Positions 4,948 to 48,770 of a stretch of 49,503 nt of DNA are shown here, piece by piece. Every line of letters starts with the position of its first letter. The stretch's first letter is position 1. A program made the translations under genes and the position numbers. The notes beneath the pieces were generated by a model. That model saw only the letters and a program-made list of their open reading frames with translations. It was not told the origin of the DNA and searched no databases. The DNA comes from an uncultured cyanobacterium (GTDB lineage Bacteria > Cyanobacteriota > Cyanobacteriia > PCC-6307 > Cyanobiaceae): the NCBI GenBank assembly GCA_903935205.1, contig CAIZQU010000169.1, positions 1-49,503 on the forward strand, written 5' to 3'.

Positions 4948-5068
4948 AGACTTCAGCACGGCGGTCGATGGTAGGGATTGGCACTTAGGATGGCTTGTAA
5001 CACAATGCTAGGCCGTGCGATCTGGCTTCGCCAATAGAAGTAACCATGATCAAACTCAAATGCCATGG

Positions 5069-6316
5069 CTAAGAATCAAAGGAATGATAACCAGTTAGAT
5101 CTGTCGCAGGGTCCACAGTCTTCCCCATCTCTAACTTAGCCAAATCATTCAACATGGCTTGCGTACGCTTATTGTAGGTATTTGCAGCAGCAGCTGCCAG
5201 TCTTTTTTGAATGGTTGGGCCCTCCTTTTCCAAGGCAGCGGCTATTGCGGAAGCAAATGCTGTTGCTGTTGTATCACAAAGAAAAGCCACATCAGCAAAA
5301 GGCTGAAGAGCATCTATGGCCGATGAAACAACCGGCAGACCAGCCGCGAGATATTCGAAGAACTTCATCGGGAACATGGACTGAGTATAAGCATTAAGAC
5401 GTAAAGGCAAAAGACCTACATCAAAGCCTCTCAGGTAGTCAGGCAGTTCGCCATAAGAGCGGGTTCCAAGAAGGTGAACATTTTTGAGCTGCAATAAGGA
5501 GGTCACATCTGTGCTTGGATCACCTTCACCCACGGGACCAATCAGAACCAAGGACCATTCAGGGTGATTGCGAGCCAAGCACACTAGCATTGGCACATCA
5601 AGTTTATAATTGCTAATTGCCCCAACAAATCCCAATCGCGGAGTTGGTATTGCTGCTAAATCATCCGGAATAGGAAGAGCTTGATTGAGAGCGTGGCCGA
5701 AATGGTTGACATCAGCAACATTTGGATAGAAATAAGTTTGTGGATTGAGGGTGCCAAGGCTACGATACAAGCCTGGAGATGTAACAAATACAATATCAGC
5801 CCTGTGGCATAAGCGATTCTCTAACTGCTCAATCTCACGTGCAGGCATTCCCGGCTGGGCCTGAATGGCATCAACGCAATGATAAATTAATCGCTTCCAA
5901 GGGCGCGGATCCAGAACTGATAGCGTCATTGGGTTGTAGGTCCAAAGCCAATCAGCTTGCAAATGCAAGCTTCGACTCCATACGAACAAGCCAACACGCA
6001 GGACAAAGCGATTGATGGCCAATCGCCACCCAGCGAGGGCGCCCGGAAAAACAAGGGGTGACCACACCCATAAACCCGGTCTCACCTGGCGTGGAGGTTG
6101 CACTCCATGGCACAGACGTCGACGGATACGACTCCAATCCGATCGTGCCTGTGTTGCCACCGGAGCATGGGCAGCTTGCCGTGGCGAGCGAAGGCCAAGT
6201 GATTCAACGTAAAGCACACGATGACCCAAGGCAACCAAGCTGCAGGCAACGTGCTGTTTGTTCGTCCAGAGGGGGTGGTCCCAGTCTGCAGTCGCGAGTA
6301 GGGTGATATCAGCCAT
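5069..6316 (-). CDS. Glycosyltransferase, GT-B type (GT4-like)
   Basis: About 415 residues. The N-terminus ITLLATADWDHPLWTNKQH followed by GHRVLYVESLG is typical of bacterial GT-B enzymes annotated as surface-polysaccharide glycosyltransferases. The C-terminal half has RLGFVGAISNYKLD and VGLLPLRLNAYTQSMFPMKFFEYLAAGLPVV, given here in pieces: the donor-site motif is PMKFFEYLAAGLPVV. I chose the ATG at 6314-6316 because a strong AGGAGG lies ten bases upstream. ATGs at 6322 and 6325 are too close to it, although the one at 6325 would overlap the upstream ABC gene. A 121-base gap separates this gene from the unknown gene downstream. Substrate unknown. Confidence 0.85.
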   Translation of the reverse strand: MADITLLATADWDHPLWTNKQHVACSLVALGHRVLYVESLGLRSPRQAAHAPVATQARSDWSRIRRRLCHGVQPPRQVRPGLWVWSPLVFPGALAGWRLAINRFVLRVGLFVWSRSLHLQADWLWTYNPMTLSVLDPRPWKRLIYHCVDAIQAQPGMPAREIEQLENRLCHRADIVFVTSPGLYRSLGTLNPQTYFYPNVADVNHFGHALNQALPIPDDLAAIPTPRLGFVGAISNYKLDVPMLVCLARNHPEWSLVLIGPVGEGDPSTDVTSLLQLKNVHLLGTRSYGELPDYLRGFDVGLLPLRLNAYTQSMFPMKFFEYLAAGLPVVSSAIDALQPFADVAFLCDTTATAFASAIAAALEKEGPTIQKRLAAAAANTYNKRTQAMLNDLAKLEMGKTVDPATDLTGYHSFDS

Positions 6317-6321
6317 GGACA

Positions 6322-8202
6322 TCATTCCTCCTGCAACGCCACCAACTCTCGGAAGGTTGCAGAGCGATCCTGGAGCGCTTTGTAATCCCCATGAGCCTTG
6401 ATTCGGCCGCGCTCAAACTCGAAGATACGGTCGCAACATCGAATTGTCGAGAGCCTGTGTGCAATGACAATTGTTGTACAGCGACGTCCAATCAGTTCGA
6501 TGGCTTCTAGTACCTCATTTTCCGTTTTGTTATCGAGTGCACTGGTCGCTTCATCCAGGATCAGAACCTTGGCTTGTTTGTAAAAAGCACGAGCCAACGC
6601 CAATCGTTGTCGTTGGCCGCCTGAAAGACGCATGCCATCTTCTCCAACAACGGTATAAATGCCGTAAGGCAGCTCAGAGACAAATTCATCAAGCTGAGCC
6701 ATCTCAAGTGCATCCCAGACTCGATTATCATTAATATCATCATCCTCAATTCCGAATGCCACATTAGAGCGTACACTTGCGTCCAATAAGACAATATTCT
6801 GAGGTACAATTGCGCAACAGGCTTGCCATGCTGGCTGCTCGGCAGGACTTAATGGAATTCCATCCAACAGAAGCTGACCTTGCTGAGGTTGCAACAGACC
6901 AAGCAGAAGATGGGCTGCCGTTGACTTGCCACCACCAGTTTTACCAACCAGCGCGACACGAGCACCAACAGGAACATTAAGATTGACGGCTTGGATGACC
7001 CAATGATTGGACTGTGGATAGCGATACCAGGCATTCTCCAGACGAATTGAGCTTCGGGGCATCACGCCGCTGGGAGACGGTGTAGAGGCAGAACCCAGCA
7101 GCAATCGCTGCGGTTTGAGCTGAAGCAGTTCCAGAGCATCTGTAATGTCAGGCAATCCACCACGCAGTTTGTTAATGGCTCGAAAAATTGCTTGAATCGG
7201 GGCTGAGAGACGCAATCCGGCAAACATAATGCCCGCCAACGTAGGTATAGCATCTTGGATATTCCTATCTGCATTCTTTTGTAGCAAGGCTGGCAAGAGG
7301 CCGATCAGGAACAAGATGGTGATGCCGGCAGGCTCAATGAGATAGCGCGGCAATTCAGGAAGAAGCTTTGAAATCCGATCATATTTTTTACCACTTGTAC
7401 CAATTTTTTCAAATTCGTTCAGATAGTACGGCTCGGCTCCATAAAGCTGAACATCACGGATGGATCGGGTCGACTCCAGTAAAAGTGAATTGACGCGTAA
7501 GGAAAAAGCTAGCTTTTGCTTGGTCGCAAATCGCAGGGGTGGTATAATAAGCAGCGAAGACATCGAATAAGCGGCAAATAAGAATGCAAAGATGGCAAGA
7601 GCACGCCAGTCGAACGCCATGGCGATGCCAATGGTCAGAACGGCTACTGATAAGGAGCTGGAGACGACCGTCAATATGGGCAGTACGATATCATCTGAAA
7701 TTCGGCTGAGAATTCGATTCAGACGAGCCAGCACGTGAATGGTGCTTTGAGATTGAAAATATTCATACGACTGGAGCAAAACATTGGAGTAGATCTTTTC
7801 ACCGTAATCAGCCCAGATTTGGGCACTCAACAAGCTCTGGATCAAGGTTGCACCATATTTCAGCAGCGTCGAAAGCCATACCAGCAGCATCAGCAGAGCA
7901 GCGATCCACATGCCCTGATCAGTAGGACCACCTCCAAAAAAGAAGATGGTAGGAATTTTATCAGACAATTTTGAGCCGCTCATGGCGCCAACCAGCCGCG
8001 CCAAGAGTCCGACGAAAACCAGATCAAACATCCCTACCAGAAGGGATACAGACAGCAGCAGCAGCAAGCCTCGCAACCGCTGGCGGGGCAAATAAGCGAG
8101 CAGCTGCGAAAGCTGCGCAAGTGTCTGACTATTGAGCAGCTTGGCTGGGGGGCTGGCTCCCTTGCGGCCTTGCACAGTCGACTCCACCACGATCAAACCC
8201 AT
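6322..8202 (-). CDS. ABC exporter, fused membrane and ATPase domains (MsbA/PglK-like)
   Basis: A 626-residue half-transporter expected to work as a homodimer in the inner membrane. The N-terminal ABC-type transmembrane domain spans about residues 40-350, with hydrophobic segments near 45-70, 98-125, 175-225 and 290-305. The nucleotide-binding domain follows: Walker A GKTGGGKST at 420-428, signature LSGGQRQRL at 526-534, Walker B VLILDEATSALD near 546-557, and H-loop His582. All catalytic motifs are intact. As first gene of the glycosyltransferase operon, it may export a lipid-linked glycan or glycolipid, in the manner of PglK or MsbA. The substrate is inferred from context. No clear ribosome-binding site precedes the ATG. 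Confidence 0.92.
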   Translation of the reverse strand: MGLIVVESTVQGRKGASPPAKLLNSQTLAQLSQLLAYLPRQRLRGLLLLLSVSLLVGMFDLVFVGLLARLVGAMSGSKLSDKIPTIFFFGGGPTDQGMWIAALLMLLVWLSTLLKYGATLIQSLLSAQIWADYGEKIYSNVLLQSYEYFQSQSTIHVLARLNRILSRISDDIVLPILTVVSSSLSVAVLTIGIAMAFDWRALAIFAFLFAAYSMSSLLIIPPLRFATKQKLAFSLRVNSLLLESTRSIRDVQLYGAEPYYLNEFEKIGTSGKKYDRISKLLPELPRYLIEPAGITILFLIGLLPALLQKNADRNIQDAIPTLAGIMFAGLRLSAPIQAIFRAINKLRGGLPDITDALELLQLKPQRLLLGSASTPSPSGVMPRSSIRLENAWYRYPQSNHWVIQAVNLNVPVGARVALVGKTGGGKSTAAHLLLGLLQPQQGQLLLDGIPLSPAEQPAWQACCAIVPQNIVLLDASVRSNVAFGIEDDDINDNRVWDALEMAQLDEFVSELPYGIYTVVGEDGMRLSGGQRQRLALARAFYKQAKVLILDEATSALDNKTENEVLEAIELIGRRCTTIVIAHRLSTIRCCDRIFEFERGRIKAHGDYKALQDRSATFRELVALQEE

Positions 8203-28351: not shown

Positions 28352-29011
28352 ATGACACTGAGTCACAAACTGAAGGCCGTTCTGCTCTCGGCCGCCACAG
28401 CCTCCCTCGCCTTGGGCGCCGGCATTGCGCCAGCTCAGGCCGCCGCCTGCCCTGGCGGCGCCGGTATCACACTGGGTTCACTGTCCACGCCTTACACCTG
28501 CACCCAGGACGGGTACTCCTTCACCCTGACCGGGTTTACGGGCTTCTCGGGCACCGATGCCATGTCGTTCTCTGCCCAGACAGTGGGTGGATTGCCAGCC
28601 TTCACCTATAGCATTCAATCTAATACCGGCTGGCAGGTAGCCACCGGAAATTACACCTTTGACTACACTCTTACGGCTCCGACTGGTTACGCCTTCAAAG
28701 CATACAGCGCTTCAGCCCAAAGCTCTGTTCCTGGTGCCGCCGGCAATTGGGAGGTTGATGCGATCGGACAGGGTGTAGCAGCGATCAGCTTCCCAACGAC
28801 TTCTACTGGCTCAGTGACTTACTCCAACGTGTTCAGCACGGATACCTTCGCTGGGAAACTCAGCTCAGCCAACGACATGCTTGGTGTCAGCGGCACAGTC
28901 ACCCTCAAGACCATCCCGGCTACCGGCACCCCCAGCCCTCTGCCCATTCTTGGGGCTACGGCTGCCTTCGGCGCTTCCCGCAGGCTGCGTCGCCGTCTGG
29001 CTGCGATCTGA
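28352..29011 (+). CDS. Secreted protein with PEP-CTERM-like C-terminal tail, copy 1
   Basis: A 219-residue exported protein. A signal peptide covers about residues 1-30 (LKAVLLSAATASLALGAG, ending AQA). The mature part starts with a cysteine pair, Cys33 and Cys50, then a Ser/Thr/Gly-rich beta-type domain. The final 26 residues (194-219) are PSPLPILGATAAF followed by GASRRLRRRLAAI: a proline motif, a short hydrophobic helix and a basic end. This has the layout of PEP-CTERM sorting signals handled by exosortases, although the PEP triplet itself is absent. The paralogue at 30485 has the same cysteine spacing and a nearly identical tail. Function is unknown; an extracellular or surface-matrix role is inferred. 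Confidence 0.85.
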   Translation: MTLSHKLKAVLLSAATASLALGAGIAPAQAAACPGGAGITLGSLSTPYTCTQDGYSFTLTGFTGFSGTDAMSFSAQTVGGLPAFTYSIQSNTGWQVATGNYTFDYTLTAPTGYAFKAYSASAQSSVPGAAGNWEVDAIGQGVAAISFPTTSTGSVTYSNVFSTDTFAGKLSSANDMLGVSGTVTLKTIPATGTPSPLPILGATAAFGASRRLRRRLAAI

Positions 29012-29027
29012 TCCTCAGATTCCCGTT

Positions 29028-29060
29028 ACCCCCTCTACTGTGTAGAGGGGGTTTTTGTTT
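29028..29060 (+). terminator. Intrinsic terminator after secreted-protein gene, copy 1
   Basis: CCCCCTCTAC and GTAGAGGGGG form a perfect ten-base-pair stem around a three-base loop, followed by TTTTTGTTT. It begins 17 bases after the stop and separates this gene from the downstream membrane-protein gene. Confidence 0.93.
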
Positions 29061-29138
29061 GTCTATTCATCGCCACTCCTGACTTGAACAGGTTCCAAGC
29101 AAGACGCTTGATCCACAATCCTCTTGAGCACCAAAAGC

Positions 29139-29885
29139 ATGACGGCCCGTCTTGATGAGCTGATCACAGACCCGCGCGCCAGCATCAATGGACGGCATCG
29201 CACTGCCCAGTCTCTCTACATCGCAGGGATCATGCTTTTTCTGGCAGGCATCAACACGTTTGCCTTTTCCCTGTTTCCGATCAAGCTGGTTGATCCGCTT
29301 TGGCAACTCAATCTCTGCACATCGATTCTCAGCAATTCCCCCTTCCTGCTCATTGCCTGTCTCTTCGTGCTGGCAGCCTCGGCACTGAACCAGAGGGACA
29401 AGCAAATCAACCGTAGAGCGACGTCCCTCTCCATTTTTTCTCGCTGGCTCAGCCTGATACTCCTGCTGAGCATCCCCTTCCAGCTTTATCTGGGCACCCA
29501 GGCCATCAAGATCCAGAATCAGGCAGTGATGGAGCAGGTGCAGGTCATCAGCAGGGTAGCCAAAGGCGTGAAGGCCACCACCAATGAACAAGAGCTCAGG
29601 GCCTTCGCGGCTACGCTCCCTGATCCCGTTAATCTTCCCGCCAAGATTGATATTCCGTTTGAGGCATTCAAGCAGCGCATCGGCGAAAGACTGCAGGGAA
29701 ACATCAATCGCGCCCTGGAACAGGCCAGCCAGCAGAAATCCAAGAATATTCAGACTTACATCAAGGAATTCACCCGCAACGCTATCCAGTCAATCATTCT
29801 TTCAACCGGCTTTGCCGCCGTGGCTGCTCTCAAGAACGAAAACTACGGTCTGCATAGCATCTTGATCTCCATGCTCCGCCTCTAA
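29139..29885 (+). CDS. HpsJ-like membrane protein, copy 1
   Basis: About 248 residues from the ATG at 29139; a TTG at 29124 would add five. Three membrane segments lie in the first half, the first ending in FAFSLFPIKLVDPLWQL, the others around FLLIACLFVLAAS and LSLILLLSIPFQLYLG. A soluble helical region follows (VKATTNEQELRAFAATLP, RLQGNINRALEQASQQKSKN), then a last hydrophobic segment, SIILSTGFAAVAAL. The F-x-LFP-x-LLDP-x-WQL pattern and this layout resemble the cyanobacterial HpsJ family, linked to hormogonium polysaccharide secretion and cyanoexosortase systems. That match is from memory. It is clearly homologous to the gene at 31256 and follows a secreted-protein gene in both cases. Confidence 0.83.
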   Translation: MTARLDELITDPRASINGRHRTAQSLYIAGIMLFLAGINTFAFSLFPIKLVDPLWQLNLCTSILSNSPFLLIACLFVLAASALNQRDKQINRRATSLSIFSRWLSLILLLSIPFQLYLGTQAIKIQNQAVMEQVQVISRVAKGVKATTNEQELRAFAATLPDPVNLPAKIDIPFEAFKQRIGERLQGNINRALEQASQQKSKNIQTYIKEFTRNAIQSIILSTGFAAVAALKNENYGLHSILISMLRL

Positions 29886-29952
29886 CGGGATCAAGCCTCG
29901 GCGATTCCCGGCAGCTCCAGGAAGAGGCGTCTGGCCGGGGTCCAAGCAGCCT

Positions 29953-29989
29953 GCAAACCCTGTCGATCGCAGTGATCAACAGGGTTTGC
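29953..29989. repeat. Inverted repeat, possible terminator of the HpsJ-like gene
   Basis: GCAAACCCTGT and ACAGGGTTTGC form a perfect eleven-base-pair stem. A further GATC/GATC pairing can continue inside after one mismatch. It lies 67 bases after the membrane-protein stop and 81 bases from the tRNA. There is no T-run on either strand, so its role is open. Confidence 0.5.
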
Positions 29990-30070
29990 GCAGAACAGCC
30001 AAACCATGCGCGGAGCCATCAGAATCAACTCCCTGCACGTCGGCAACCAGATCGGCACGGTCTCGGTTCA

Positions 30071-30144
<74 letters not shown>

Positions 30145-30484
30145 TCGCAGCCTCATCATAATGGGCAAGGCCCAGAATGTTCACCACGGGCATCCTCTGG
30201 GGCCGAGCTAAACCCCATCACGCTGGCTGCCCGCAGGCACGATGGCAGCTGCAAGGGCCTGAGAGCGCCATGCACGAACCGATGCGGACGCTGCTGGAAA
30301 CGCCCGCGCCTGCCATGGGCGGCATGGCGGCCCCCTCGAATCCACCAGCTCCGAGAGGCGCAGCGAGACTCAGGCAAGACAGGCGAGCTCCGCCTCGGGC
30401 TCGAAAACGCTGACCATTCGCCGGCAATCGCCACATTCGGGGCCAGATGTGCGACAATAAGGGTGAAAGTGAGGTTTTCATTTC
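30145..30484. other. Intergenic stretch upstream of the second cassette
   Basis: About 340 bases without a supported gene. The tRNA promoter (minus strand) should lie just above 30144. The promoter of the secreted-protein gene should lie near 30440-30470, where the sequence becomes AT-richer. A GAGG occurs ten bases before the ATG at 30485. Open frames here are chance frames. Confidence 0.5.
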
Positions 30485-31138
30485 ATGGTGCGCAATTTGC
30501 ACAAAATTTTTCTTCCCGCTCTTGCTGCAGCAGGGGTCATGGGAGCAGCAACACCCTCGCAGGCCGCTCTGTGCAACACATACACCACTATTGGGGACCT
30601 CGCCGCTGCATCCGGCGCAAGCTGCACTCTTTCGAGTGGCTGGACGTTTACCTACAAACCGACAACCACTCTCCCGCTGACGACTCTGTTCACATTCTCC
30701 GGCTCGGCGTCGATAGCGACCTTGAGCCTTCAGGGTGATCCTAATCCCTTTTCGCCTGGTACTTACAACTATAATTTCAGTCTAACTGCCCCTCCCACTA
30801 GGTATATGACCAAATATTCATCCTCGATCACGAGTTCTGTTTCTCCTGCTGATGCTGGCACTTGGGGCATTACAAGTGCCGCGACTGGCCAACAAGCCCT
30901 CGGCACCTACGTATCTCCCAATGGCGTAACCGCTAACAAGTTTTACGGCACCACCACCACTTACTCCGACATCTTCACTGGTGTCATGACCGTATCTGGA
31001 GGTCAAATCACCCAATTCACATCATCTTTCAATACCGCTCTAATTCCTGTTGGAACGCCGGGCCCTCTGCCTATTCTGGGTGCAAGTGCAGCTTTCGCCT
31101 ATTCACGCCGGATTCGTCGTCGGGCCATGGCGGCATAA
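30485..31138 (+). CDS. Secreted protein with PEP-CTERM-like C-terminal tail, copy 2
   Basis: A 217-residue exported protein. The signal peptide is at about 1-27 (KIFLPALAAAGVMGAATP, ending SQA). The mature part begins with Cys30 and Cys47, the same 17-residue spacing as in the copy at 28352. A Thr/Ser-rich domain then has many short beta-like segments and low charge (FTFSGSASIATLSLQG, TYNYNFSLTAP). The C-terminal residues 192-217 read PGPLPILGASAAF then AYSRRIRRRAMAA, nearly the same as copy 1. The central domain has diverged strongly while the signal and tail are conserved. An exosortase-type anchoring step is inferred; no exosortase gene lies in this window. Confidence 0.85.
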   Translation: MVRNLHKIFLPALAAAGVMGAATPSQAALCNTYTTIGDLAAASGASCTLSSGWTFTYKPTTTLPLTTLFTFSGSASIATLSLQGDPNPFSPGTYNYNFSLTAPPTRYMTKYSSSITSSVSPADAGTWGITSAATGQQALGTYVSPNGVTANKFYGTTTTYSDIFTGVMTVSGGQITQFTSSFNTALIPVGTPGPLPILGASAAFAYSRRIRRRAMAA

Positions 31139-31161
31139 TTTTTGCGCCTACTCAGCTTTTG

Positions 31162-31188
31162 GCCTCCCTAAATTAGGGAGGCTTTTTT
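31162..31188 (+). terminator. Intrinsic terminator after secreted-protein gene, copy 2
   Basis: GCCTCCCT and AGGGAGGC form an eight-base-pair stem around AAATT, followed by six T residues. It starts 23 bases after the stop, in the same place within the cassette as the terminator at 29028. Confidence 0.93.
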
Positions 31189-31255
31189 GTTCTTAGATAA
31201 TCCTTGGCAGCCACCTTCTCTGCCGTGATTGTCTATTATCCCAAGCCAATTTCAG

Positions 31256-32011
31256 ATGACAATGTTTGACATGGAAGGCTCTGCAGAAAGTCTTCTTCGG
31301 TCTTCTCGCAATGTTCGCCAGCGAGTGGCGCAGTGCCTCAATACATGTGCGATTCTCGTCGCATTTGCAAATCTCACCCCCTTTGTATTCTCCCTTTTTC
31401 CCTTAAAACTACTTGATCCTTTCTGGCAGCTTGGCCTCAGCGCATCAATATTGACCGCCAGCATTCCCATTCTGATTTCTTTTTTGTTGGCGATTGCTGC
31501 GCTGGGCTTCACCCCCAACAGCGAGATCTTGCTCAATCGCTACAATACTATTGCCAGACTATCGGCCGCCCTGGCGTTGATGCTTCTCTTGACCATTCCA
31601 TTCCAGATATACTCTGGACTCAACGCCTTGGATTCAAAAACTCAAACAGTGCTTGATGAGGTCAAGACGCTCAAGGCCATTGCCAGAAGGATCCAGGCAA
31701 CCAATAACGAACAACAATTGAGGCTCTATGTGGCCACTTTGCCGAACGCCCCGAGTCTGCCACCCAAATTTGATTTTCCATTTCCACAAGTCAAGCAAAT
31801 GGTCTTGGAAAACATAGAAGGCATCATCAACAAAGCGCTGAATGATTCCAGATCTCAAAAAGCCAGCGCCATGCAAACCTTCATTCTGGAATGCACGCGA
31901 AACAGCATCCAGTGCCTGATTCTGTCAACGGCCTTCACCGTGATCAGCGCCGTTGGCAGCGGTCGCTATGGCTTGATAGCGATAACGGTACTCGCTCTCT
32001 TCAGGCTCTAG
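31256..32011 (+). CDS. HpsJ-like membrane protein, copy 2
   Basis: About 251 residues from the ATG at 31256; a TTG at 31229 and ATGs at 31262 and 31271 are alternatives. It is clearly homologous to the gene at 29139. Shared segments are FVFSLFPLKLLDPFWQL, LLTIPFQIYSGLNAL, RRIQATNNEQQLRLYVATLP and NSIQCLILSTAFTVISAV. There are three N-terminal hydrophobic segments, a helical soluble middle, and one C-terminal membrane segment. The family resemblance is to cyanobacterial HpsJ. Sequence identity between the copies is moderate, so the duplication is old or the copies were gained separately. GC content is low compared with the flanking core. Confidence 0.83.
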   Translation: MTMFDMEGSAESLLRSSRNVRQRVAQCLNTCAILVAFANLTPFVFSLFPLKLLDPFWQLGLSASILTASIPILISFLLAIAALGFTPNSEILLNRYNTIARLSAALALMLLLTIPFQIYSGLNALDSKTQTVLDEVKTLKAIARRIQATNNEQQLRLYVATLPNAPSLPPKFDFPFPQVKQMVLENIEGIINKALNDSRSQKASAMQTFILECTRNSIQCLILSTAFTVISAVGSGRYGLIAITVLALFRL

Positions 32012-32296
32012 CCTGATCAGCTGTTCCGCCGATCCCCAATATCTTTTCAGGCTCCTTCGCGCTCGACTGCCTTGATCGCATCGGGCCCACTCTGCGACAG
32101 CTCCCAGGTCTTGATTCCTCCATTGGAGACATCAGGCCATGCCAGCAGATGCCACGGCGAGGCCGACATTGACTGAGCGCCACAGTCCCGGGCCTTCCCC
32201 GGATTATGGCCCTGGTTATGCCTTGATTCGGCTCTCGGTCGCCCGCGCAACCCACCTCAGCACAACTGACCTCACCAACACGGCGTACCATGCTCC

Positions 32297-32740
32297 AGGA
32301 AAAGCAGGCGAGGTGATCGCGATCGGTGAGGTCACGGCGGGTTTCGGCCGCGGCGGGGCTTCGGCCGGTTGAGGAAAGTCCGGGCTCCCCGATGGCCAGG
32401 CCTGCCGGGTAACGCCCGGTGCGGGTGACCGTGAGGACAGTGCCACAGAAACACACCGCCGATGGCAACGGCGGCCGTTGGCCGCCGCTCGCACAGGCAA
32501 GGGTGCAAAGGTGCGGTAAGAGCGCACCAGCGGCATCGAGAGGTGCCGGCTCGGTAAACCCCGGCCGGGAGCAAGGCCAGGGCTTCGGCCCGCGGAACAA
32601 GGGCTGGTCATCATCCCGTTCCGTTCCACCAGCGCCGCTTGAGGCCGCCGGTAACGGCGGTCCCAGACAGATGATCACCCCCACCGCTGGGTCTGTCCCT
32701 GCGGTGGTGAACAGAACCCGGCTTACGTCCTGCTTTCCCC
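32297..32740 (+). ncRNA. rnpB: RNase P RNA (bacterial type A)
   Basis: The catalytic RNA of RNase P, which matures tRNA 5' ends. The universally conserved 5' P4 strand GAGGAAAGTCCGGGCTCC is at 32371-32388. GCCACAGAAACAC follows at about 32442. The 3' P4 strand ACAGAACCCGGCTTACG is at 32711-32727. The terminal P1 helix can form between GGAAAAGCAGG near 32298-32308 and CCTGCTTTCC near 32729-32738, which sets the ends to within a few bases. Six T residues follow at 32741. A long minus-strand frame across it is a shadow. The gene for RNase III follows immediately. Confidence 0.95.
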
Positions 32741-32812
32741 TTTTTTCAGGCCCATGGGCCATGGGCCGGATGGAAGGATGAAGCTCCTTCCTCACCACCC
32801 TCCGCCGCCGCC

Positions 32813-42878: not shown

Positions 42879-43853
42879 TCAGAGGTGGGCCTGCACCGTA
42901 TTTAGAATTGCTTGGTCGAGGGGCACAGCAACACCGAGCCCATGCATTGCCTTGATCTTCTCGATCTTTGGCACATAGCGGTTGCGAGCGGCGGCGGGCT
43001 GGGAAGCTCCGAGGATATGCACAGGTTTGGCCGGAGCAATCAGATCACGAACGAGATGGGCAAGTTCGGCGATGCTGATCACCTGATCGGAACCGACGTT
43101 ATAGGTTTCGCCATCCTTGCCTTCCAGCAATAGGGTCCAGAGCCAGTGGGCGAGATCACGTTGATCGAGATAGGTGCGCAGGGGAGAGCCATCACCCGCC
43201 ACCGTGATCGCGTCGGCACTGAGTGCATCGTGGATGAAATTGCCGATGGCGAAATGAACATCCAGCGGCAGATCAGGGCCAATGAAGGCAAAACAACGGG
43301 CGATCACGGTTTCAAGACCGTGGGCATCGCGGTAGAGAGCGCAGAGATGCTCGGCTACACGTTTCGCCTGGCTGTAGGCGGTGGCAGGTTCGGCGAGGGG
43401 AGGACTACCGGGCCAGTCTTCGGGGATGGCATCAAGATCGGCGGGCTGGGGGCCGTAGATGCCACCGGAACTGGTGAGCAGGAAACGGCGTGCTCCACTG
43501 GCCACCGCCAGATCCAGAATGTTGATGGTGCCATCATGAATCTGCTTATAGCGCTGCAACGGCGTCAGCCGGGGTCCGAAGGTGGAATCGGTGGCGGCAT
43601 GCAAGACGTGGCTGAAGCTCTGTCCCCAGGGAAGGGAGTCACGATCCTGGATATCACCTTGGTGAAAAGAGATCCCTGGATGGGTGCATAGCTCAGGATG
43701 AGCATCCTGGAAACGAGCCGGATCACGGCTGAGCAGAACAATCGGCCAATCGATAGCCATCGACCTCTTGTTCAACCCGGCGACATACTGGTAGCGCAGC
43801 AGAGATTTGCCGAAGAATCCCGTACCTCCAGTAATCAGGAGCCTAGGCGTCAT
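42879..43853 (-). CDS. NAD(P)-dependent epimerase/dehydratase (extended SDR)
   Basis: A 324-residue nucleotide-sugar-modifying enzyme. The dinucleotide motif GGTGFFG is at about 9-15. The active site has the Ser of TSSGGIYG (near 127-134) and Tyr160/Lys164 in AYSQAKR. The C-terminal substrate domain contains RTYLDQRDLAHWL and GETYNVGSDQVISI, the usual RDLA and YNVGS signatures of NDP-sugar SDRs. As the last gene of the cluster it could reduce a 4-keto or branched-chain keto sugar, as YerF does, or be a 4-epimerase. It is separated from the aldolase-like gene by 120 bases and has higher GC than its neighbours. Confidence 0.88.
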   Translation of the reverse strand: MTPRLLITGGTGFFGKSLLRYQYVAGLNKRSMAIDWPIVLLSRDPARFQDAHPELCTHPGISFHQGDIQDRDSLPWGQSFSHVLHAATDSTFGPRLTPLQRYKQIHDGTINILDLAVASGARRFLLTSSGGIYGPQPADLDAIPEDWPGSPPLAEPATAYSQAKRVAEHLCALYRDAHGLETVIARCFAFIGPDLPLDVHFAIGNFIHDALSADAITVAGDGSPLRTYLDQRDLAHWLWTLLLEGKDGETYNVGSDQVISIAELAHLVRDLIAPAKPVHILGASQPAAARNRYVPKIEKIKAMHGLGVAVPLDQAILNTVQAHL

Positions 43854-43973
43854 AAGGTGGATAACAATGAAACGAAGATCGAGGTGTCAACGGCTAGACA
43901 GCCCCTGCTTGAATGCAAAACACAGCCGCCGCCAGCCAGAGTTGATAGCCATGTCAGGCCAAGTCTCAAAAAC

Positions 43974-44780
43974 CTAGAGCAGGATTTCCCTCTCGAGCAC
44001 TCCCCAACGACTTTCCAATTGATGAATACGCGCTTGATCTTCGCGATGAAGAGCGCCATAGTATTGACTTTTGTTAATCAACCAAAGAATCTCAAAATGA
44101 ACAGCATCCAATAACGATTCAGGCAATGAGCTATCACCGAGACTCGAAGATGCAAAGACGACTTTTCGAGTTTCAAAGCGATTGAGCTTGGCTTTAGCGA
44201 ACTGCTGAAGCTCAGGCAAGGAAGCAATGGAAACAGCACCACCGACGACGAACTCAAGTGGAGTGGCAGCGAGTTTGCTGGCCATTGAAACACCTGCAGC
44301 AGTCACCTCAGAATTTTGAACATCACTTTTAATTCCTAAAGAACCAGAAAAGTCGGTTCGCCCAAAAACAATGCCAGCGATACTTTGATTGCGCAATGCT
44401 GCCGACAAGAGATCGTCAAAAAGCCTGTAGGCCTGAATGGTTTCCACATTAAATAAAAAACGGACTTCGGAACGTTCGTCTTCCGGATAAACCTTAACAA
44501 TTGTATCCGCATACTTCTCAAGGGCATATGGCGATTCAATCATCGGTGCCACTATGAAACGGGCACCGAACTGGCGAGCTTCATATAGATCCTTGACGGC
44601 TTCACAACCACCAATTTTCAAGGTCAGTGGAACATTGTGAGTATGGATAATATCCAATAACCGCAACAATTCGTCATTTCGAGTTCCTTCTGCTTCAAAC
44701 TCAGCCTTAATACTTACAAGATGACCGCGGGACTTAATACGATTAACAAGCTCACACAGCTTTTTTTCGGTTGCGTTCAT
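43974..44780 (-). CDS. HpcH/HpaI aldolase / citrate lyase-like protein
   Basis: A 268-residue TIM-barrel protein of the phosphoenolpyruvate/pyruvate-binding superfamily. LTLKIGGCEAVKDLYEA, FIVAPMIESPYALEKYA (Glu82), VRFLFNVETIQAYRLF (Glu113) and GIVFGRTDFSGSLGI (Asp143) line up with the metal and pyruvate site of HpcH/HpaI and CitE-type enzymes. The reaction would be aldol cleavage or formation with pyruvate, or C-C lyase chemistry on an acyl group. Its ATG is five bases after the stop of the TPP-enzyme gene, with GGAG at good distance, so they are co-translated. Its role in a sugar cluster is not established. Confidence 0.8.
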   Translation of the reverse strand: MNATEKKLCELVNRIKSRGHLVSIKAEFEAEGTRNDELLRLLDIIHTHNVPLTLKIGGCEAVKDLYEARQFGARFIVAPMIESPYALEKYADTIVKVYPEDERSEVRFLFNVETIQAYRLFDDLLSAALRNQSIAGIVFGRTDFSGSLGIKSDVQNSEVTAAGVSMASKLAATPLEFVVGGAVSIASLPELQQFAKAKLNRFETRKVVFASSSLGDSSLPESLLDAVHFEILWLINKSQYYGALHREDQARIHQLESRWGVLEREILL

Positions 44781-44785
44781 CGGAA

Positions 44786-46600
44786 CTACTCCGTGAGAGT
44801 TTGCGTTGAGAAGTAAGGGGCTACTCGCCGAAACGTATCCTCGGGCAGATCAGGACCAATCAGATGTAGTGGATTGGACTCCATGCTGCCAGCACTCGTA
44901 ACACGAGATGAGATCTTGGGGAAGAATGTTTGCTCCGGGTGAATCGGAACAAGAACGGCACAAGCCTGATCCTTCTTTAGAAATTCGAGTAAATCCGGGT
45001 CGGCAAAACCAGCGGATGTCATTATAGCACACTCGATGCCAAAACTGGCAAACAAATTCTGCCAGTCAGGGAAAGCAAGCCCTGAGTCTTCATCGCAGCC
45101 AAGCCAAGCGCCCTGAAAATAGTTACGCTGTGTTTGACGAATGGATGCGTAACCACGATTAACCCACAAGAATATTCGCAGATTAGATACATGCTTATAA
45201 GCAACTACAAGTTCCTGAAGATTTTGAAGAAACCCCCCATCACCCTCCACTAGAAAGACCGGGCGGTCAGGATGAGCTAGGGCTACACCCAAAGCCCCAG
45301 ACAAACCATAGCCCATTGCAGCCTGGCTTTTATTGCTCAACATCAGAGCTTGATGCGGCAAAGAGACGGCTTGATAAGAAGACGTAAACGAAGAACCACT
45401 ACTGCAAGGGACCAGTACGGAGCGCTCAGGCATGTATTTAGATAACTGTTGCCAGAACTCGTATGGATTGATAGAGTTAGAATGACGTGAGTTGATCGGC
45501 TCACTGAGGGGAAGCTCATCTTTAACCCGCGTACAGAAGGCAAGCCAAGGCTCTTGCTCAGGAGTCAGTTGAAATGCGTCATCCATAAGCAACTGGTCTA
45601 GCAATGAATTGGCATCACAACAAAGACCGCAATCAACATGAGGGTGACCCTTGCTCAGTTCAGCCGGATCAATATCAACCTGAATTAGGTGTGCGAAGGG
45701 AGCAAACTCCTGCCAGTTAAAGCCAGTTTGTTGCAAGCCCAGGCGAGTTCCAAGCGCCAAGATAAAATCAGCTTGCTGAAGCAGAAGATTAGAGTATCGC
45801 ATTCCCCACGTATTTGGTCTTCCAAAGTAGTTGGGAGCTTGACTATCGATCCGATCAGTTCCATTGTAGGTTGTCATCATCGGGATCCTGGCTGCCTGCA
45901 GGGAATCAGCAAGATTCCAAGCCAGAGCTCGTGATATTCCTCCTCCAATAAGCAAGACCGGTCGTTTTGATTCTCTAAATCTCTCCACAAGGCCGGTCAT
46001 AGAGTCTCTATCCAGCCTAGCCAAAGGCTGTGGCGATTGAATATCAGCACCAATCTGTAGAGCCGCCTGAGAATCGAGCGCAAGGGCCTGAACATCCAGA
46101 GGGATTTCTAAAAAAACAGGACCTTTTCGTGCCGTCTGCCCGACGAGCACGGCATTCAGAGCATCAACCAGCTGGCCTGGCTCCTCGAGGCGGATCGAGA
46201 TCTTTGTGATCGATTGCGTTAAGGCAACGCCATCGACTTCCTGGATGCCACGTTGGCGCACATCACCTCGGGCCAAATCAGACAGCTTGACTTGACCTCC
46301 GATCAGCAAAAGTTCACGACTCTCCTGCCAAGCTCCTGCCACAGCGGTCAGAACATTGGTGAGGCCAGGGCCTGCGGTGACAAGACAGAAAGCACGACCT
46401 TCGCTGTCGTCAATCGAGGCGTTGTGGTACTCGGTGGCGATGGCAGCACCAACTTCGTGAGCAAACGGTATGCAAATCAGACGAGTACGCACGCTGTTGA
46501 GCATATGCATGATATTGCCGCCTGCAACGAAATAGCAATATCGATAGCCGAGCTCGACGAGCTTATCAACGAGGAAATCGGAAAGTTTTTGACTGGTCAT
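44786..46600 (-). CDS. Thiamine diphosphate-dependent enzyme, acetolactate-synthase-like (YerE-type candidate)
   Basis: About 604 residues with the three-domain layout of the acetolactate synthase/pyruvate decarboxylase group. The catalytic glutamate is in FAHEVGAAIATEY (Glu49 from this start). LVTAGPGLTNVLTAVAGAW follows, then a central domain (VLLIGGGISRALAWNLADS). The TPP/Mg motif VEGDGGFLQNLQEL ends at VNRGYASI, with GDG near residue 453. It could be a carboligase adding a two-carbon unit from pyruvate to a keto-sugar, as YerE does in yersiniose synthesis. The ATG at 46598-46600 forms an ATGA overlap with the HAD gene; an ATG nine bases earlier is possible. GC is about 45%. Confidence 0.87.
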   Translation of the reverse strand: MTSQKLSDFLVDKLVELGYRYCYFVAGGNIMHMLNSVRTRLICIPFAHEVGAAIATEYHNASIDDSEGRAFCLVTAGPGLTNVLTAVAGAWQESRELLLIGGQVKLSDLARGDVRQRGIQEVDGVALTQSITKISIRLEEPGQLVDALNAVLVGQTARKGPVFLEIPLDVQALALDSQAALQIGADIQSPQPLARLDRDSMTGLVERFRESKRPVLLIGGGISRALAWNLADSLQAARIPMMTTYNGTDRIDSQAPNYFGRPNTWGMRYSNLLLQQADFILALGTRLGLQQTGFNWQEFAPFAHLIQVDIDPAELSKGHPHVDCGLCCDANSLLDQLLMDDAFQLTPEQEPWLAFCTRVKDELPLSEPINSRHSNSINPYEFWQQLSKYMPERSVLVPCSSGSSFTSSYQAVSLPHQALMLSNKSQAAMGYGLSGALGVALAHPDRPVFLVEGDGGFLQNLQELVVAYKHVSNLRIFLWVNRGYASIRQTQRNYFQGAWLGCDEDSGLAFPDWQNLFASFGIECAIMTSAGFADPDLLEFLKKDQACAVLVPIHPEQTFFPKISSRVTSAGSMESNPLHLIGPDLPEDTFRRVAPYFSTQTLTE

Positions 46601-47241
46601 GACATGCAACCCATGGCTGGAAGTAAATCAATCATCTGGTCAATAATGAAAGCAGGCTTCGCCTCGCTAAGGCGATCTCTACCATGGGCACCGATGCTGA
46701 TACCGATGGCATCGATCCCTGCACGGCTGGCCGCCTCCATGTCAAAGACCGTGTCGCCAACCATCACAGCAGCCAGGGCTGGATCGTGAGAAAGACAAGC
46801 GAGCAGGATATCGGGGTGCGGCTTGTGCTTCAGAGGTGGATCCGTACCTTGCACATGACTGAAATAGGGCAGCAGACCATAGCGCTCCAACAAAAGGGCC
46901 GCCAAAGCAGTAGGTTTGGTCGTGGCGAGCGAAACCCTTGCCCCCAATTGATTTATTCTATTCAAGACAATCAGGACACCCGGATAAACACACTCGGGAT
47001 CGCCAGCATGATCGGCTAGGCGCTGGCGAAAACTGGCAACCAGTTGCTCAGCATCGGCGGGATTGCATCCATGATCAAGGAAGAATTGGACTGGAGGGCT
47101 GCCTGTCTTTTCGCGAATGTAACGCAAGCTGGGCTGCTCAAGGCCTTGCTCACGACAGACGTGGGCGGCGGCTTCATGAATTTCACTCGCAGAATCAACC
47201 AGGGTTCCGTCAAGGTCGAAGATAATGTGCTGATACTTCAT
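46597..47241 (-). CDS. HAD-superfamily hydrolase (phosphatase)
   Basis: A 214-residue phosphatase of the phosphoglycolate phosphatase/beta-phosphoglucomutase type. Motif I is IIFDLDGTLVDSA with nucleophile Asp9 and acid Asp11. Motif II is the threonine of SLATTKPTAL. Motif III is the lysine of KHKPHPDILLACL. Motif IV is VMVGDTVFDMEAASRAG. The helical cap lies at about 18-80. All catalytic residues are present. It sits between the RfbH-like and TPP-enzyme genes and overlaps the latter, so its substrate is probably a sugar or acyl phosphate of the same pathway. Confidence 0.9.
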   Translation of the reverse strand: MKYQHIIFDLDGTLVDSASEIHEAAAHVCREQGLEQPSLRYIREKTGSPPVQFFLDHGCNPADAEQLVASFRQRLADHAGDPECVYPGVLIVLNRINQLGARVSLATTKPTALAALLLERYGLLPYFSHVQGTDPPLKHKPHPDILLACLSHDPALAAVMVGDTVFDMEAASRAGIDAIGISIGAHGRDRLSEAKPAFIIDQMIDLLPAMGCMS

Positions 47242-47282
47242 GAAAGATGTTCTTGGGACATAGACACAATTAAGTCATCAAG

Positions 47283-48770
47283 TCAGCGGATAACAAAGGC
47301 GCGAATCACCTCAATCTCACGCGCCAACATCGCATCGGTGAGGCCTGGGTAGGTGCCCAGGAACAGTGTACTGGTCATGATCTCATCGGATCCTTCCATC
47401 TCCCCAACCACACGCAGGGCTTCAGGGCGGTCGCGGCGCAGCTGAACAAAGGCAGGCTGACGCAACAGGTTGCCGCCGAAGAGCATGCGATTGCCGATCT
47501 GATGGCGATCGAGCTCTTGGGCCAGCTCGGTTCGGTTGAAGGAAGCCTCTGGCTTAACAGCAAGCTTGAACCCGAACCAAGAGCATTCGCTGCGGCAGCC
47601 GCTACTGTCCCAGGAGAAACCTCGCTGGGCATCCCAGGCGGTGGCATGGGTTGGCAGGGCGAATTCGAGCACGTTCTCGTGGCCGGCGAGACCGCGGCGC
47701 AGCGTATCCCAGTTACGCTTGCGCGCCTCAATGAACTCGGGTAGGCGCCGAAGCTGCACCCGGCCGATGGCGGCCTGCGGATCGAGGGGTTTGAGATTGA
47801 AGCCGAGGTGGCTGTAGGTGTACTTGTGGTCATAGCCGGCGGGAAGTTCACCGAGCTGCCAGCCGAAGCGCTTGTTGCAGGTGTTGTCGATGCCACTGGG
47901 ACACCAGCAATCGCGGCCCCAGTCGCGGAAACTCTCGGCGATCACCTTGAGCTTCTGATCTCGGACGATATTGACGGCGCCGCCCTCGCCCATCGTGAGG
48001 TGATGGGGGGGATAAAAGCTCTGGGTGCTGATGTCACCCCAGGTGCCGGTCCAGCGCACCACCCGATCGGGACCTTCATCCAGCCCTGGGCTGTTGTCTG
48101 TGAGGCCAAGACTCTCGGCCAATTCACGCGGCATTGAGTAACTACAGCCGAGGGCGTCGCAGTTGTCCTCCACCAGCCACAGATCGTACTTGCGGCAGAA
48201 GGCCAGGGTGGCCGCCAGATCAAAGGGGTTCCCAAGGGCGTGGGCCATCATCACCGCCTTGGTCTTGCCAGGGCTGTAGGCGGCCTCGAGCTGATCGCAG
48301 CGAGCATTGCCGGTGATCGGGTCGGCATCGATGAACACCGGCACTGCGCCCACCTGCACAATCGGAGCGACGGTGGTCGGGAAGCCGGCGGCCACGGTGA
48401 TCACCTCATCGCCGGGCCTGAGCCTGCGCGCTTCGGGCAGCTTGGCGGAGGTGAGGGCTGAGATCGCCACAAGGTTGGCGCTGGAGCCGGAATTCACCAG
48501 GAGGCTGTGGCGCACGCCCATGAAGGCGGCCAGCTCACTCTCCATCGCGGCGCCTTCGGAGCCGAGGGTGAGCCAGAAATCGAGCGTGGTGGAAACGGCC
48601 GCTGCCACCTCATCTTCCGCAAAGACCCGGCCTGCGTAGGGGATGGTGCTGCCCTCCTGCCAGGGAGTGCGCTCCGGATCGGCGGCGGGTCGGAAGGATC
48701 CGTGCACCTGGCGCGAATACTCGCGGGTGAGAGCGAGGATCTGTTGCTTGAGCTCGGCGGGGGTGGTCAC
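47283..48770 (-). CDS. rfbH: CDP-4-keto-6-deoxyglucose 3-dehydratase (E1/RfbH-type)
   Basis: A 495-residue PMP/iron-sulfur enzyme of the aminotransferase fold that removes the 3-hydroxyl of CDP-4-keto-6-deoxyglucose on the way to 3,6-dideoxy sugars. In SFYPPHHLTMGEGGAV a histidine (His256) replaces the usual PLP-binding lysine, the mark of E1 and ColD enzymes. Cysteines in EDNCDALGCS and in FRDWGRDCWCPSGIDNTC match the 2Fe-2S region of E1. VNSGSSANLVAISAL and DEVITVAAGFPTT are typical cofactor-loop segments. The start is GTG with no clear ribosome-binding site. It is first in the minus-strand cluster. The cytidylyltransferase, 4,6-dehydratase and E3 reductase partners are not in the window. 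Confidence 0.92.
   Translation of the reverse strand: MTTPAELKQQILALTREYSRQVHGSFRPAADPERTPWQEGSTIPYAGRVFAEDEVAAAVSTTLDFWLTLGSEGAAMESELAAFMGVRHSLLVNSGSSANLVAISALTSAKLPEARRLRPGDEVITVAAGFPTTVAPIVQVGAVPVFIDADPITGNARCDQLEAAYSPGKTKAVMMAHALGNPFDLAATLAFCRKYDLWLVEDNCDALGCSYSMPRELAESLGLTDNSPGLDEGPDRVVRWTGTWGDISTQSFYPPHHLTMGEGGAVNIVRDQKLKVIAESFRDWGRDCWCPSGIDNTCNKRFGWQLGELPAGYDHKYTYSHLGFNLKPLDPQAAIGRVQLRRLPEFIEARKRNWDTLRRGLAGHENVLEFALPTHATAWDAQRGFSWDSSGCRSECSWFGFKLAVKPEASFNRTELAQELDRHQIGNRMLFGGNLLRQPAFVQLRRDRPEALRVVGEMEGSDEIMTSTLFLGTYPGLTDAMLAREIEVIRAFVIR

What the first reader, a model, noticed from the sequence alone, without database searches (positions are those of the whole stretch)
28352..32011. 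Duplicated secreted-protein / HpsJ-like membrane-protein cassette on both sides of tRNA-Arg
Two direct copies of the same gene order lie within 3.7 kb: a secreted protein (219 and 217 residues), a terminator, then a membrane protein (about 248 and 251 residues). The membrane proteins share motifs such as FSLFPxKLxDPxWQL and ATxNEQxLRxxxATLP. The secreted proteins share the cysteine spacing (17) and the last 26 residues, while their middles have diverged strongly. The block has lower GC than its surroundings and contains a tRNA. This looks like a surface-protein export or display module that diversifies its cargo, and I know of no description of it as a two-gene unit.
Basis: partly seen in the sequence, partly recalled or inferred. 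Interest (0 to 1): 0.75.

Follow-up and report, generated by a model that had tools for sequence, protein, structure and literature searches.

The report
Surface protein with its sorting partner
A cyanobacterium carries two copies of a recurring gene pair, a secreted protein with a shared C-terminal sorting tag followed by a membrane protein that in many other cyanobacteria sits beside the tag-processing enzyme (exosortase); in this genus many tagged proteins have their own neighbouring partner, a little-described variation on a known protein-sorting system.

Summary
In detail: two cargo/membrane gene pairs lie at 28352-29885 and 30485-32011 (cargos 31% identical, membrane proteins 42%). The pair recurs. 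In six congeners, 38 of 68 HpsJ-like places have a tailed cargo directly upstream on the same strand (0.11 expected); 52 of 56 strong ones have a tail within 3 kb. The tail (VPGPLPVLGAAAAFGFSRKLRRRI) is PEP-CTERM-like but reached no NCBIfam cut-off where tested. One cyanoexosortase A-like gene lies in a polysaccharide locus. In other genera of the family an HpsJ-like gene lies within 300 bp of the exosortase at 16 of 25 places, in this genus at 0 of 7. Within genomes, HpsJ-like similarity follows the cargo body, not the tail. A terminator-like hairpin lies in 23 of 34 longer cargo-to-HpsJ gaps and after HpsJ in 0 of 43. The site is conserved; six congeners hold one cassette, the window two. 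Best reading: exosortase-sorted surface proteins, each with an inner-membrane partner; contact and function are inferred. One similar pair with above-cut-off members was found in another family. New variant of a known kind.

The parts
28352..29011 (+). cargo 1: secreted protein, 219 aa, signal-peptide-like N-terminus, beta-rich body, C-terminal sorting tail
28910..29005 (+). cargo 1 sorting tail (PxPLPxxGAxAAFxxSRxLRRR)
   Evidence: profile match, (this tail is one of the six that seeded the profile)
29028..29060 (+). terminator-like hairpin with T run between cargo 1 and its partner
29124..29885 (+). HpsJ-like membrane protein 1 (253 aa from TTG, 248 aa from ATG)
   Evidence: NF050013 66.8 bits, below cut-off 140; model
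30071..30144 (-). tRNA-Arg(CCT), conserved neighbour at this site, not part of the unit
30485..31138 (+). cargo 2: secreted protein, 217 aa
31040..31135 (+). cargo 2 sorting tail
   Evidence: also a seed of the profile
31161..31191 (+). terminator-like hairpin with T run between cargo 2 and its partner
31229..32011 (+). HpsJ-like membrane protein 2 (260 aa from TTG, 251 aa from ATG)
   Evidence: NF050013 44.2 bits, below cut-off 140; 42% identical to copy 1
32301..32740 (+). RNase P RNA (rnpB), conserved right-hand neighbour, not part of the unit
   Evidence: RF00010, 205.7 bits

Best explanation
Each pair encodes an exosortase-sorted surface protein and its own inner-membrane partner. The cargo enters the periplasm by its signal peptide and stays held by its C-terminal tail. 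The single cyanoexosortase A-like enzyme reads the common tail, cuts it and hands the protein on towards the envelope or exopolysaccharide. The HpsJ-like protein, membrane helices with a predicted long helical stalk, probably periplasmic, acts on the same face of the membrane as an accessory (escort or adaptor) for the neighbouring cargo. Shown: gene adjacency, common tail, one exosortase gene in a polysaccharide locus, HpsJ-exosortase linkage in other genera, joint divergence of HpsJ-like protein and cargo body, a hairpin between the genes. Inferred: tail cleavage, topology, physical contact, the escort role, and cargo-rich expression through the terminator.
For: Recurrent adjacency: 38 of 68 places co-directional within 700 bp, 0.11 expected (computed for 67 places). 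Tail in 13 of 13 genomes of the genus and 0 of 7 of other families. Of 151 family genomes, 21 of the 23 with the tail have the exosortase; all 29 with the exosortase have an HpsJ-like match, 28 and G085. HpsJ-like match within 300 bp of the exosortase at 16 of 25 places (22 genomes of other genera), within 900 bp at 19 of 25, and at 0 of 7 in this genus with about 4 kb read on each side. Other families: exosortase within about 1.5 kb in 26 of 30 loci, these being the best-scoring match of 30 genomes. In G120 and G085 tail, HpsJ-like gene and exosortase stand in a row. In G247, another family, an above-cut-off HpsJ_like_A follows an above-cut-off PEP-CTERM ORF by about 60 bp. Own exosortase gene beside glycosyltransferases and a polysaccharide synthesis gene; PF09721 91.9 bits, cut-off 25.7. 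HpsJ similarity tracks cargo body within genomes (r 0.65, 0 of 5000 shuffles as high; without same-locus pairs r 0.43, 9 of 5000), not the tail (r -0.15, below most shuffles). Hairpin in 23 of 34 gaps, 1.9 expected; 0 of 43 after HpsJ.
Against: Both membrane proteins score below NCBIfam cut-offs (66.8 and 44.2 against 140; 47.3 and 33.3 against 60). In this genome 9 of 16 HpsJ-like genes have no strict tail in the stretch read, about 5 kb on each side or to the contig end, and at least 33 of 41 tails have no HpsJ-like match near, so the partner is not needed beside every cargo. The body correlation also follows from duplication of whole units, without contact. Nine of 43 pairs overlap or have gaps under 40 bp, and 11 of 34 longer gaps have no hairpin; orthologous pairs are counted separately, so these are not independent events. 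Of 10 further HpsJ-like A stretches in five genomes of other families, 7 have no exosortase within about 3 kb, and only one of these 7 has a PEP-CTERM-like ORF. Models are of middling confidence (mean pLDDT 68 and 77), and HpsJ has no PDB match at E 0.001 or better. The hydropathy rule finds no fourth membrane segment in copy 1, and loop charges do not settle the topology of copy 2.
Confidence: 0.55

Rival explanations
1. The HpsJ-like protein belongs to polysaccharide assembly (a chain-length or export helper), and the tailed protein decorates or anchors that polysaccharide. The pair links one surface protein to one glycan rather than an escort to its client.
For: HpsJ takes its name from hormogonium polysaccharide genes (NCBIfam name; hpsJ listed in the hps set in PMC10581220, one passage); the exosortase lies in a polysaccharide locus; the cargo model resembles carbohydrate-binding beta-sandwiches, weakly; membrane helices with a long helical stalk.
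Against: The paired genes sit beside cargo genes and outnumber the exosortase (5 to 18 merged places per genome, weak matches included). Middling fold matches are common for such models (note). I did not annotate the flanks of the paired genes for glycan genes, so this is weak evidence.
Confidence: 0.2
2. Linkage only: the two genes travel and duplicate together, but the proteins do not act on each other.
For: Intergenic hairpins suggest partly separate transcription; unit duplication alone gives joint divergence; solitary members of both kinds are common.
Against: Adjacency recurs in different arrangements (of 56 strong places: 38 co-directional within 700 bp, 2 further up, 10 divergent, 2 convergent, 4 with none within 3 kb), among pairs whose cargo bodies show no detectable similarity, and once in another family; passive linkage would tend to be lost.
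Confidence: 0.18
3. A polymorphic secreted effector with a membrane immunity protein.
For: Two diverging adjacent genes, tandem arrays, orphan copies.
Against: The same membrane family lies beside the exosortase in other genera and families; gene-wide dN/dS is below 1 in the nine orthologous pairs compared; PHROGs and PADLOC give only weak matches (E 0.0073 and 0.0049).
Confidence: 0.05

Closest known systems
PEP-CTERM/exosortase (EpsH) protein sorting
   Same: Signal peptide, C-terminal motif plus hydrophobic stretch plus basic cluster, an exosortase among polysaccharide genes, many cargos with divergent bodies (PMC1569441, passages read).
   Different: The motif is PGP or PSP followed by LP rather than PEP; no NCBIfam tail model reached its cut-off where tested (TIGR04155 over the whole genome; all models on the two window cargos, three other cargos and three typed tails); a membrane partner gene accompanies many single cargos.
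Cyanoexosortase A with HpsJ-like A (NCBIfam TIGR03763, NF050013)
   Same: The membrane proteins match NF050013 best, and the genome has one TIGR03763-like enzyme.
   Different: Both are below the curated cut-offs; here the HpsJ-like copies lie beside cargos, not beside the exosortase, and number up to 16-18 per genome. Several copies, some without an exosortase near, also occur in other families.
PEP-CTERM ORF followed by HpsJ-like A in G247 (another family)
   Same: Same order and strand, about 60 bp apart, both above NCBIfam cut-offs (TIGR02595 21.3 against 16; NF050013 215.8 against 140).
   Different: Canonical PEP tail, a repeat-type cargo body (TIGR05002), and the only such case in the 10 further stretches.
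Cyanoexosortase B (CrtB) system of Nostoc punctiforme
   Same: Cyanobacterial exosortase acting with PEP-CTERM proteins on surface adhesion and polysaccharide (PMC12188702, passages including parts of abstract and discussion).
   Different: Different exosortase type; the passages I saw (12 of 52 places) describe no partner gene for each cargo.
HpsJ of the hormogonium polysaccharide locus (NF050014)
   Same: Weak resemblance (21 and 12.1 bits).
   Different: Far below its cut-off of 260.

Membership tests
PEP-CTERM sorting signal | N-terminal signal peptide | tested here: met
   signal-like N-terminus by a simple rule in 32 of 36 paired cargos of 150 aa or more; starts were chosen partly by that look and no trained predictor was available
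PEP-CTERM sorting signal | C-terminal motif, hydrophobic stretch, basic cluster | tested here: met
   tail alignment and column counts
PEP-CTERM sorting signal | Pro-Glu-Pro motif, or cyano_PEP (TIGR04155) above cut-off | tested here: not met
   PGP/PSP in place of PEP; no match over cut-off in the genome; best typed tail 16.7 bits against 21.6
PEP-CTERM sorting signal | exosortase in the same genome | tested here: met
   own genome; 21 of 23 tail-bearing genomes among 151
Exosortase/archaeosortase superfamily | PF09721 and TIGR04178 above cut-off | tested here: met
   91.9 bits against 25.7; 43.1 against 23
Cyanoexosortase A (TIGR03763) | score above curated cut-off 150 | tested here: not met
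   119.4 to 119.7 bits; 0 of 151 family genomes over the cut-off
HpsJ-like A (NF050013) | score above curated cut-off 140 | tested here: not met
   66.8 and 44.2 bits, though all 8 members of alignment A3 match it at E up to 0.001
HpsJ-like A (NF050013) | association with cyanoexosortase A | tested here: inconclusive
   29 of 29 exosortase genomes in the family sample have an HpsJ-like match, but the genes are not adjacent in this genus (0 of 7)
HpsJ family (NF038305) | score above curated cut-off 60 | tested here: not met
   47.3 and 33.3 bits
Exosortase substrates | tail is cleaved by the exosortase | not testable with these tools
   needs an experiment

The most novel reading that the evidence does not exclude
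One exosortase, many adaptors: in this genus an exosortase accessory has multiplied into cargo-specific adaptors, so that the shared tail addresses the enzyme while each HpsJ-like stalk recognises its own cargo body, and an intergenic terminator keeps the adaptor scarce relative to the cargo.
Probability: 0.3. Interest if true: 0.75.

Novelty: new variant of a known kind. Interest (0 to 1): 0.55.

Why it matters
What HpsJ-family proteins do, and how exosortases pick and hand over cargo, are open questions. Cyanobacteria with one exosortase gene and natural cargo/partner pairs, some in tandem, would make both testable by removing or swapping single pairs. If true, it also shows how a fixed chromosomal site can renew a surface protein while keeping its sorting route.

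Tried and rejected
Mobile island at a tRNA: rejected. The order glgP, two small genes, cassette, tRNA-Arg, rnc, rimM, manC is shared with congeners. A cassette lies before the tRNA in G003, G004, G009 and G010 and after it in G006 and G008; the window has both (rnpB was searched in seven stretches besides the window, not in G010's, and found in six of them, not in G011's). G002 has a tail but no HpsJ-like match between tRNA and rnpB, and its stretch shows no glgP on the left. G011 gave no rnc match, and its related cassette (L121) showed none of the flanking genes.

Multiplication of HpsJ-like genes as something unique to this genus: not upheld. Other families also have genomes with several copies (up to 5 or 6 matches). 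Of 10 further stretches in five such genomes, 3 hold an exosortase, 2 a PEP-CTERM-like ORF (one stretch holds both), and one of these ORFs lies directly upstream of HpsJ-like A.

Positive selection: gene-wide dN/dS was below 1 in all nine orthologous pairs compared. In several, the cargo body has a higher dS than its HpsJ neighbour, which may mean exchange of bodies or alignment error. The G006/G008 pair at this site is nearly identical in cargo (100% of 224 body codons by amino acid, rounded), so fast change is not uniform.

Functional fold: cargo, Foldseek best E about 1e-3 to a PNGase domain and carbohydrate-binding modules with low TM-scores; VIA-align best Z 7.4, none at 8 or more, within the range its note calls common; no function is claimed. 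HpsJ: no PDB match at E 0.001 or better. PDB sequence searches gave only weak matches (best E 0.046) or none. Promoter scan: no excess over shuffles; the tool's terminator count over the whole stretch (7 against 4.0, sd 2.1) is a modest excess. The stronger result is the position of hairpins across pairs, by my own rule and with mononucleotide shuffles.

Literature: cyanoexosortase (5 papers), HpsJ/exosortase/cyanobacteria, PEP-CTERM with picocyanobacteria terms (20 of 185 listed), HpsJ alone (20 of 83 listed, unrelated clinical papers), PEP-CTERM with accessory/adjacent/cargo, PEP-CTERM with Cyanobium (none), hormogonium polysaccharide (10 of 16 listed). Nothing in the listings or the passages I saw (one search found no term in the main text) described the pair. 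Only open-licence papers are held.

Limits: profile A1 was seeded with six tails lying near HpsJ-like genes in this genome; it found 35 further tails there, at least 33 of them not near an HpsJ-like match. Profile A2 (14 rows) comes from this genome; the adjacency count uses six other genomes, chosen for contiguity out of 12 congeners. In the family-wide searches only part of the candidates were scored (52 per genome, 16), so their counts are lower bounds; an HpsJ-like match next to the exosortase in G102 and G085 was missed there and seen. Merging first gave 67 places and fused two copies; the corrected count is 68. The tail columns were cut by a motif that fixes two prolines. The draft of this report gave 14 of 25 places for the exosortase neighbourhood, read by eye; one search replaces it.
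Full report
1. The observation. The cargos share 31% identity, the membrane proteins 42%. Both cargos have two cysteines 17 apart. Both gaps hold a terminator-like hairpin. GC is 0.49-0.61 against 0.68-0.70 in the two stretches compared.

2. The same genome. It (3.82 Mb, 169 contigs) has 16 matches to NF050013, none over its cut-off, one cyanoexosortase A-like gene, and 41 tails at E up to 2e-4 by a profile of six tails. By a strict tail rule, 5 of the 16 HpsJ-like genes have a tailed ORF directly upstream, one has a tail 2.1 kb upstream, one has a tail downstream, and nine have none in the stretch read. Profile A2 adds another HpsJ-like place on contig C133, 147 bp behind a tail.

3. Congeners. 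In six contiguous genomes of the genus, the HpsJ profile gave 71 matches and the tail profile 78. After merging and one correction there are 68 HpsJ places: 38 with a tail directly upstream on the same strand within 700 bp, 3 co-directional further up, 10 divergent, 3 convergent, 1 downstream, 13 with none within 3 kb. For the 56 strong places (E below 1e-20) the numbers are 38, 2, 10, 2, 0 and 4. Chance from gene densities, assuming even spacing, is 0.11 for the first class and about 2 for any tail within 3 kb. Several cassettes in a row occur in G004, G006 and G008.

4. The tail. Over 36 paired cargos the consensus is VPGPLPVLGAAAAFGFSRKLRRRIK. It has the three parts of a PEP-CTERM signal, but PGP or PSP in place of PEP, and reached no NCBIfam cut-off where tested. 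It is in 13 of 13 genomes of the genus and 0 of 7 of other families, and in 23 of 151 genomes of the family sample.

5. The enzyme. The exosortase-like gene passes PF09721 and TIGR04178 and lies among glycosyltransferase and polysaccharide genes; it is below the TIGR03763 cut-off. Of 151 family genomes 29 have it. All 29 have an HpsJ-like match (28; G085), and 21 of the 23 tail-bearing genomes have it; the two without are 85 and 88% complete.

6. Where HpsJ-like genes lie. I read about 4 kb on each side of all 32 exosortase places found, less at contig ends (the own genome's stretch is L030). In this genus 0 of 7 have an HpsJ-like match there. In other genera of the family, 16 of 25 have one within 300 bp, 3 more at 670-880 bp (weak matches), 6 none. 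In G120 and G085 tail, HpsJ-like gene and exosortase stand in a row. In other families, 26 of 30 loci (the best-scoring match of 30 genomes) hold an exosortase-like ORF within about 1.5 kb, one of them weakly (E 1e-4), and 1 of 30 a PEP-CTERM-like ORF by a simple rule. Further copies in multi-copy genomes are different: of 10 stretches, 3 hold an exosortase and 2 a PEP-CTERM-like ORF. In one, G247, an above-cut-off HpsJ_like_A directly follows an above-cut-off PEP-CTERM ORF. By inference, an exosortase neighbour has multiplied, and in this genus many copies have settled beside cargos. NCBIfam also holds an HpsJ-like family named for cyanoexosortase C, which fits a role tied to exosortases.

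7. Joint divergence. Within genomes, HpsJ similarity follows cargo body similarity, with signal and tail removed (r 0.65, 0 of 5000 shuffles as high; without same-locus pairs r 0.43, 9 of 5000), and not tail similarity (r -0.15, lower than nearly all shuffles) (an earlier version). Units therefore duplicate and diverge together; this does not by itself show contact.

8. The gap. Of 43 pairs in seven genomes, 34 have a gap of 40 bp or more; 23 of these hold a hairpin with a T run, 1.9 expected in shuffles. The same rule gives 0 of 43 after HpsJ, 2 of 43 inside HpsJ and 4 of 43 before the cargo. Nine pairs overlap or nearly so. Orthologues are counted separately. I read this as high cargo and lower partner expression, or separate promoters; neither is shown.

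9. The site. RNase III orthologues in congeners lie near the same kind of cassette. With tRNA-Arg(CCT), rnpB, glgP and manC they define a conserved site. HpsJ-like proteins there are 29-34% identical to the window copies (41% for G010 against copy 2), while rnc is 55-60% (71% for G010), rimM about 69%, and glgP and manC mostly above 80%. In a tree of 75 HpsJ-like sequences the window copies are sisters (0.99), next to G010 (0.93), within a clade (0.97) of the site's members plus one from G011. The second copy therefore most likely arose in the window's lineage.

10. Structure. The cargo model is all-beta with a C-terminal helix at the tail (mean pLDDT 68). The HpsJ model is helical, with two helices of 59 residues (mean pLDDT 77). 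In copy 1 positive charges lie mainly in the N-terminus and second loop, which would place the stalk in the periplasm, but the hydropathy rule finds no fourth segment there; copy 2 has the fourth segment and uninformative loops.

11. Host. Named records with close relatives of this HpsJ subfamily are Aphanothece cf. minutissima CCALA 015, Synechococcus sp. CS-1332, a metagenome-assembled cyanobacterium and Cyanobium sp. Cruz CV13-4-11, all four with a tail upstream. No call names the window's own species; a Cyanobium-like picocyanobacterium is an inference.

12. Verdict. A real, recurrent two-gene unit within the exosortase sorting world: a new variant of a known kind. Most likely an exosortase-sorted surface protein with its own membrane partner; how the partner acts is open.

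Noticed in passing
window 235-8202, minus strand: Low-GC run (0.47-0.53 per kb over the first 8 kb) with four glycosyltransferases and an ABC exporter, likely a surface-glycan cluster.
   Followed up: partly
window 42879-48770, minus strand: Partly GC-poor stretch with sugar epimerase, aldolase-like, TPP enzyme, HAD hydrolase and DegT aminotransferase genes, likely nucleotide-sugar synthesis.
   Followed up: partly
window 32001-32798, minus strand: This 265-aa ORF lies over RNase P RNA (32301-32740) and is probably spurious.
   Followed up: yes
G000:C152:28063-30610: Three tailed genes within 2.6 kb in the window's own genome, without an HpsJ-like match on that contig; this genome has 41 tails against 5-17 in the six congeners counted.
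   Followed up: no
L119 (G002:C61) 6567-6653: Tail between tRNA-Arg and rnpB with no HpsJ-like match in the stretch, an orphan at the same site.
   Followed up: partly
L083 5973-6779: HpsJ-like gene of Cyanobium sp. Cruz CV13-4-11 falls in two reading frames, so it may be broken or misassembled.
   Followed up: no
L001 737-1411, minus strand: The 224-aa protein encoded just after the exosortase matches no NCBIfam model (E up to 10) or Pfam model (E up to 0.001).
   Followed up: partly
L157 1678-3609 (G247, another family): PEP-CTERM ORF with NxxGxxAF repeats directly followed by an above-cut-off HpsJ_like_A, a similar pair outside the family.
   Followed up: partly
L149 (G085:C2) 3986-5601: Small genome (1.7 Mb) with tail, HpsJ-like match and exosortase in a row.
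   Followed up: no
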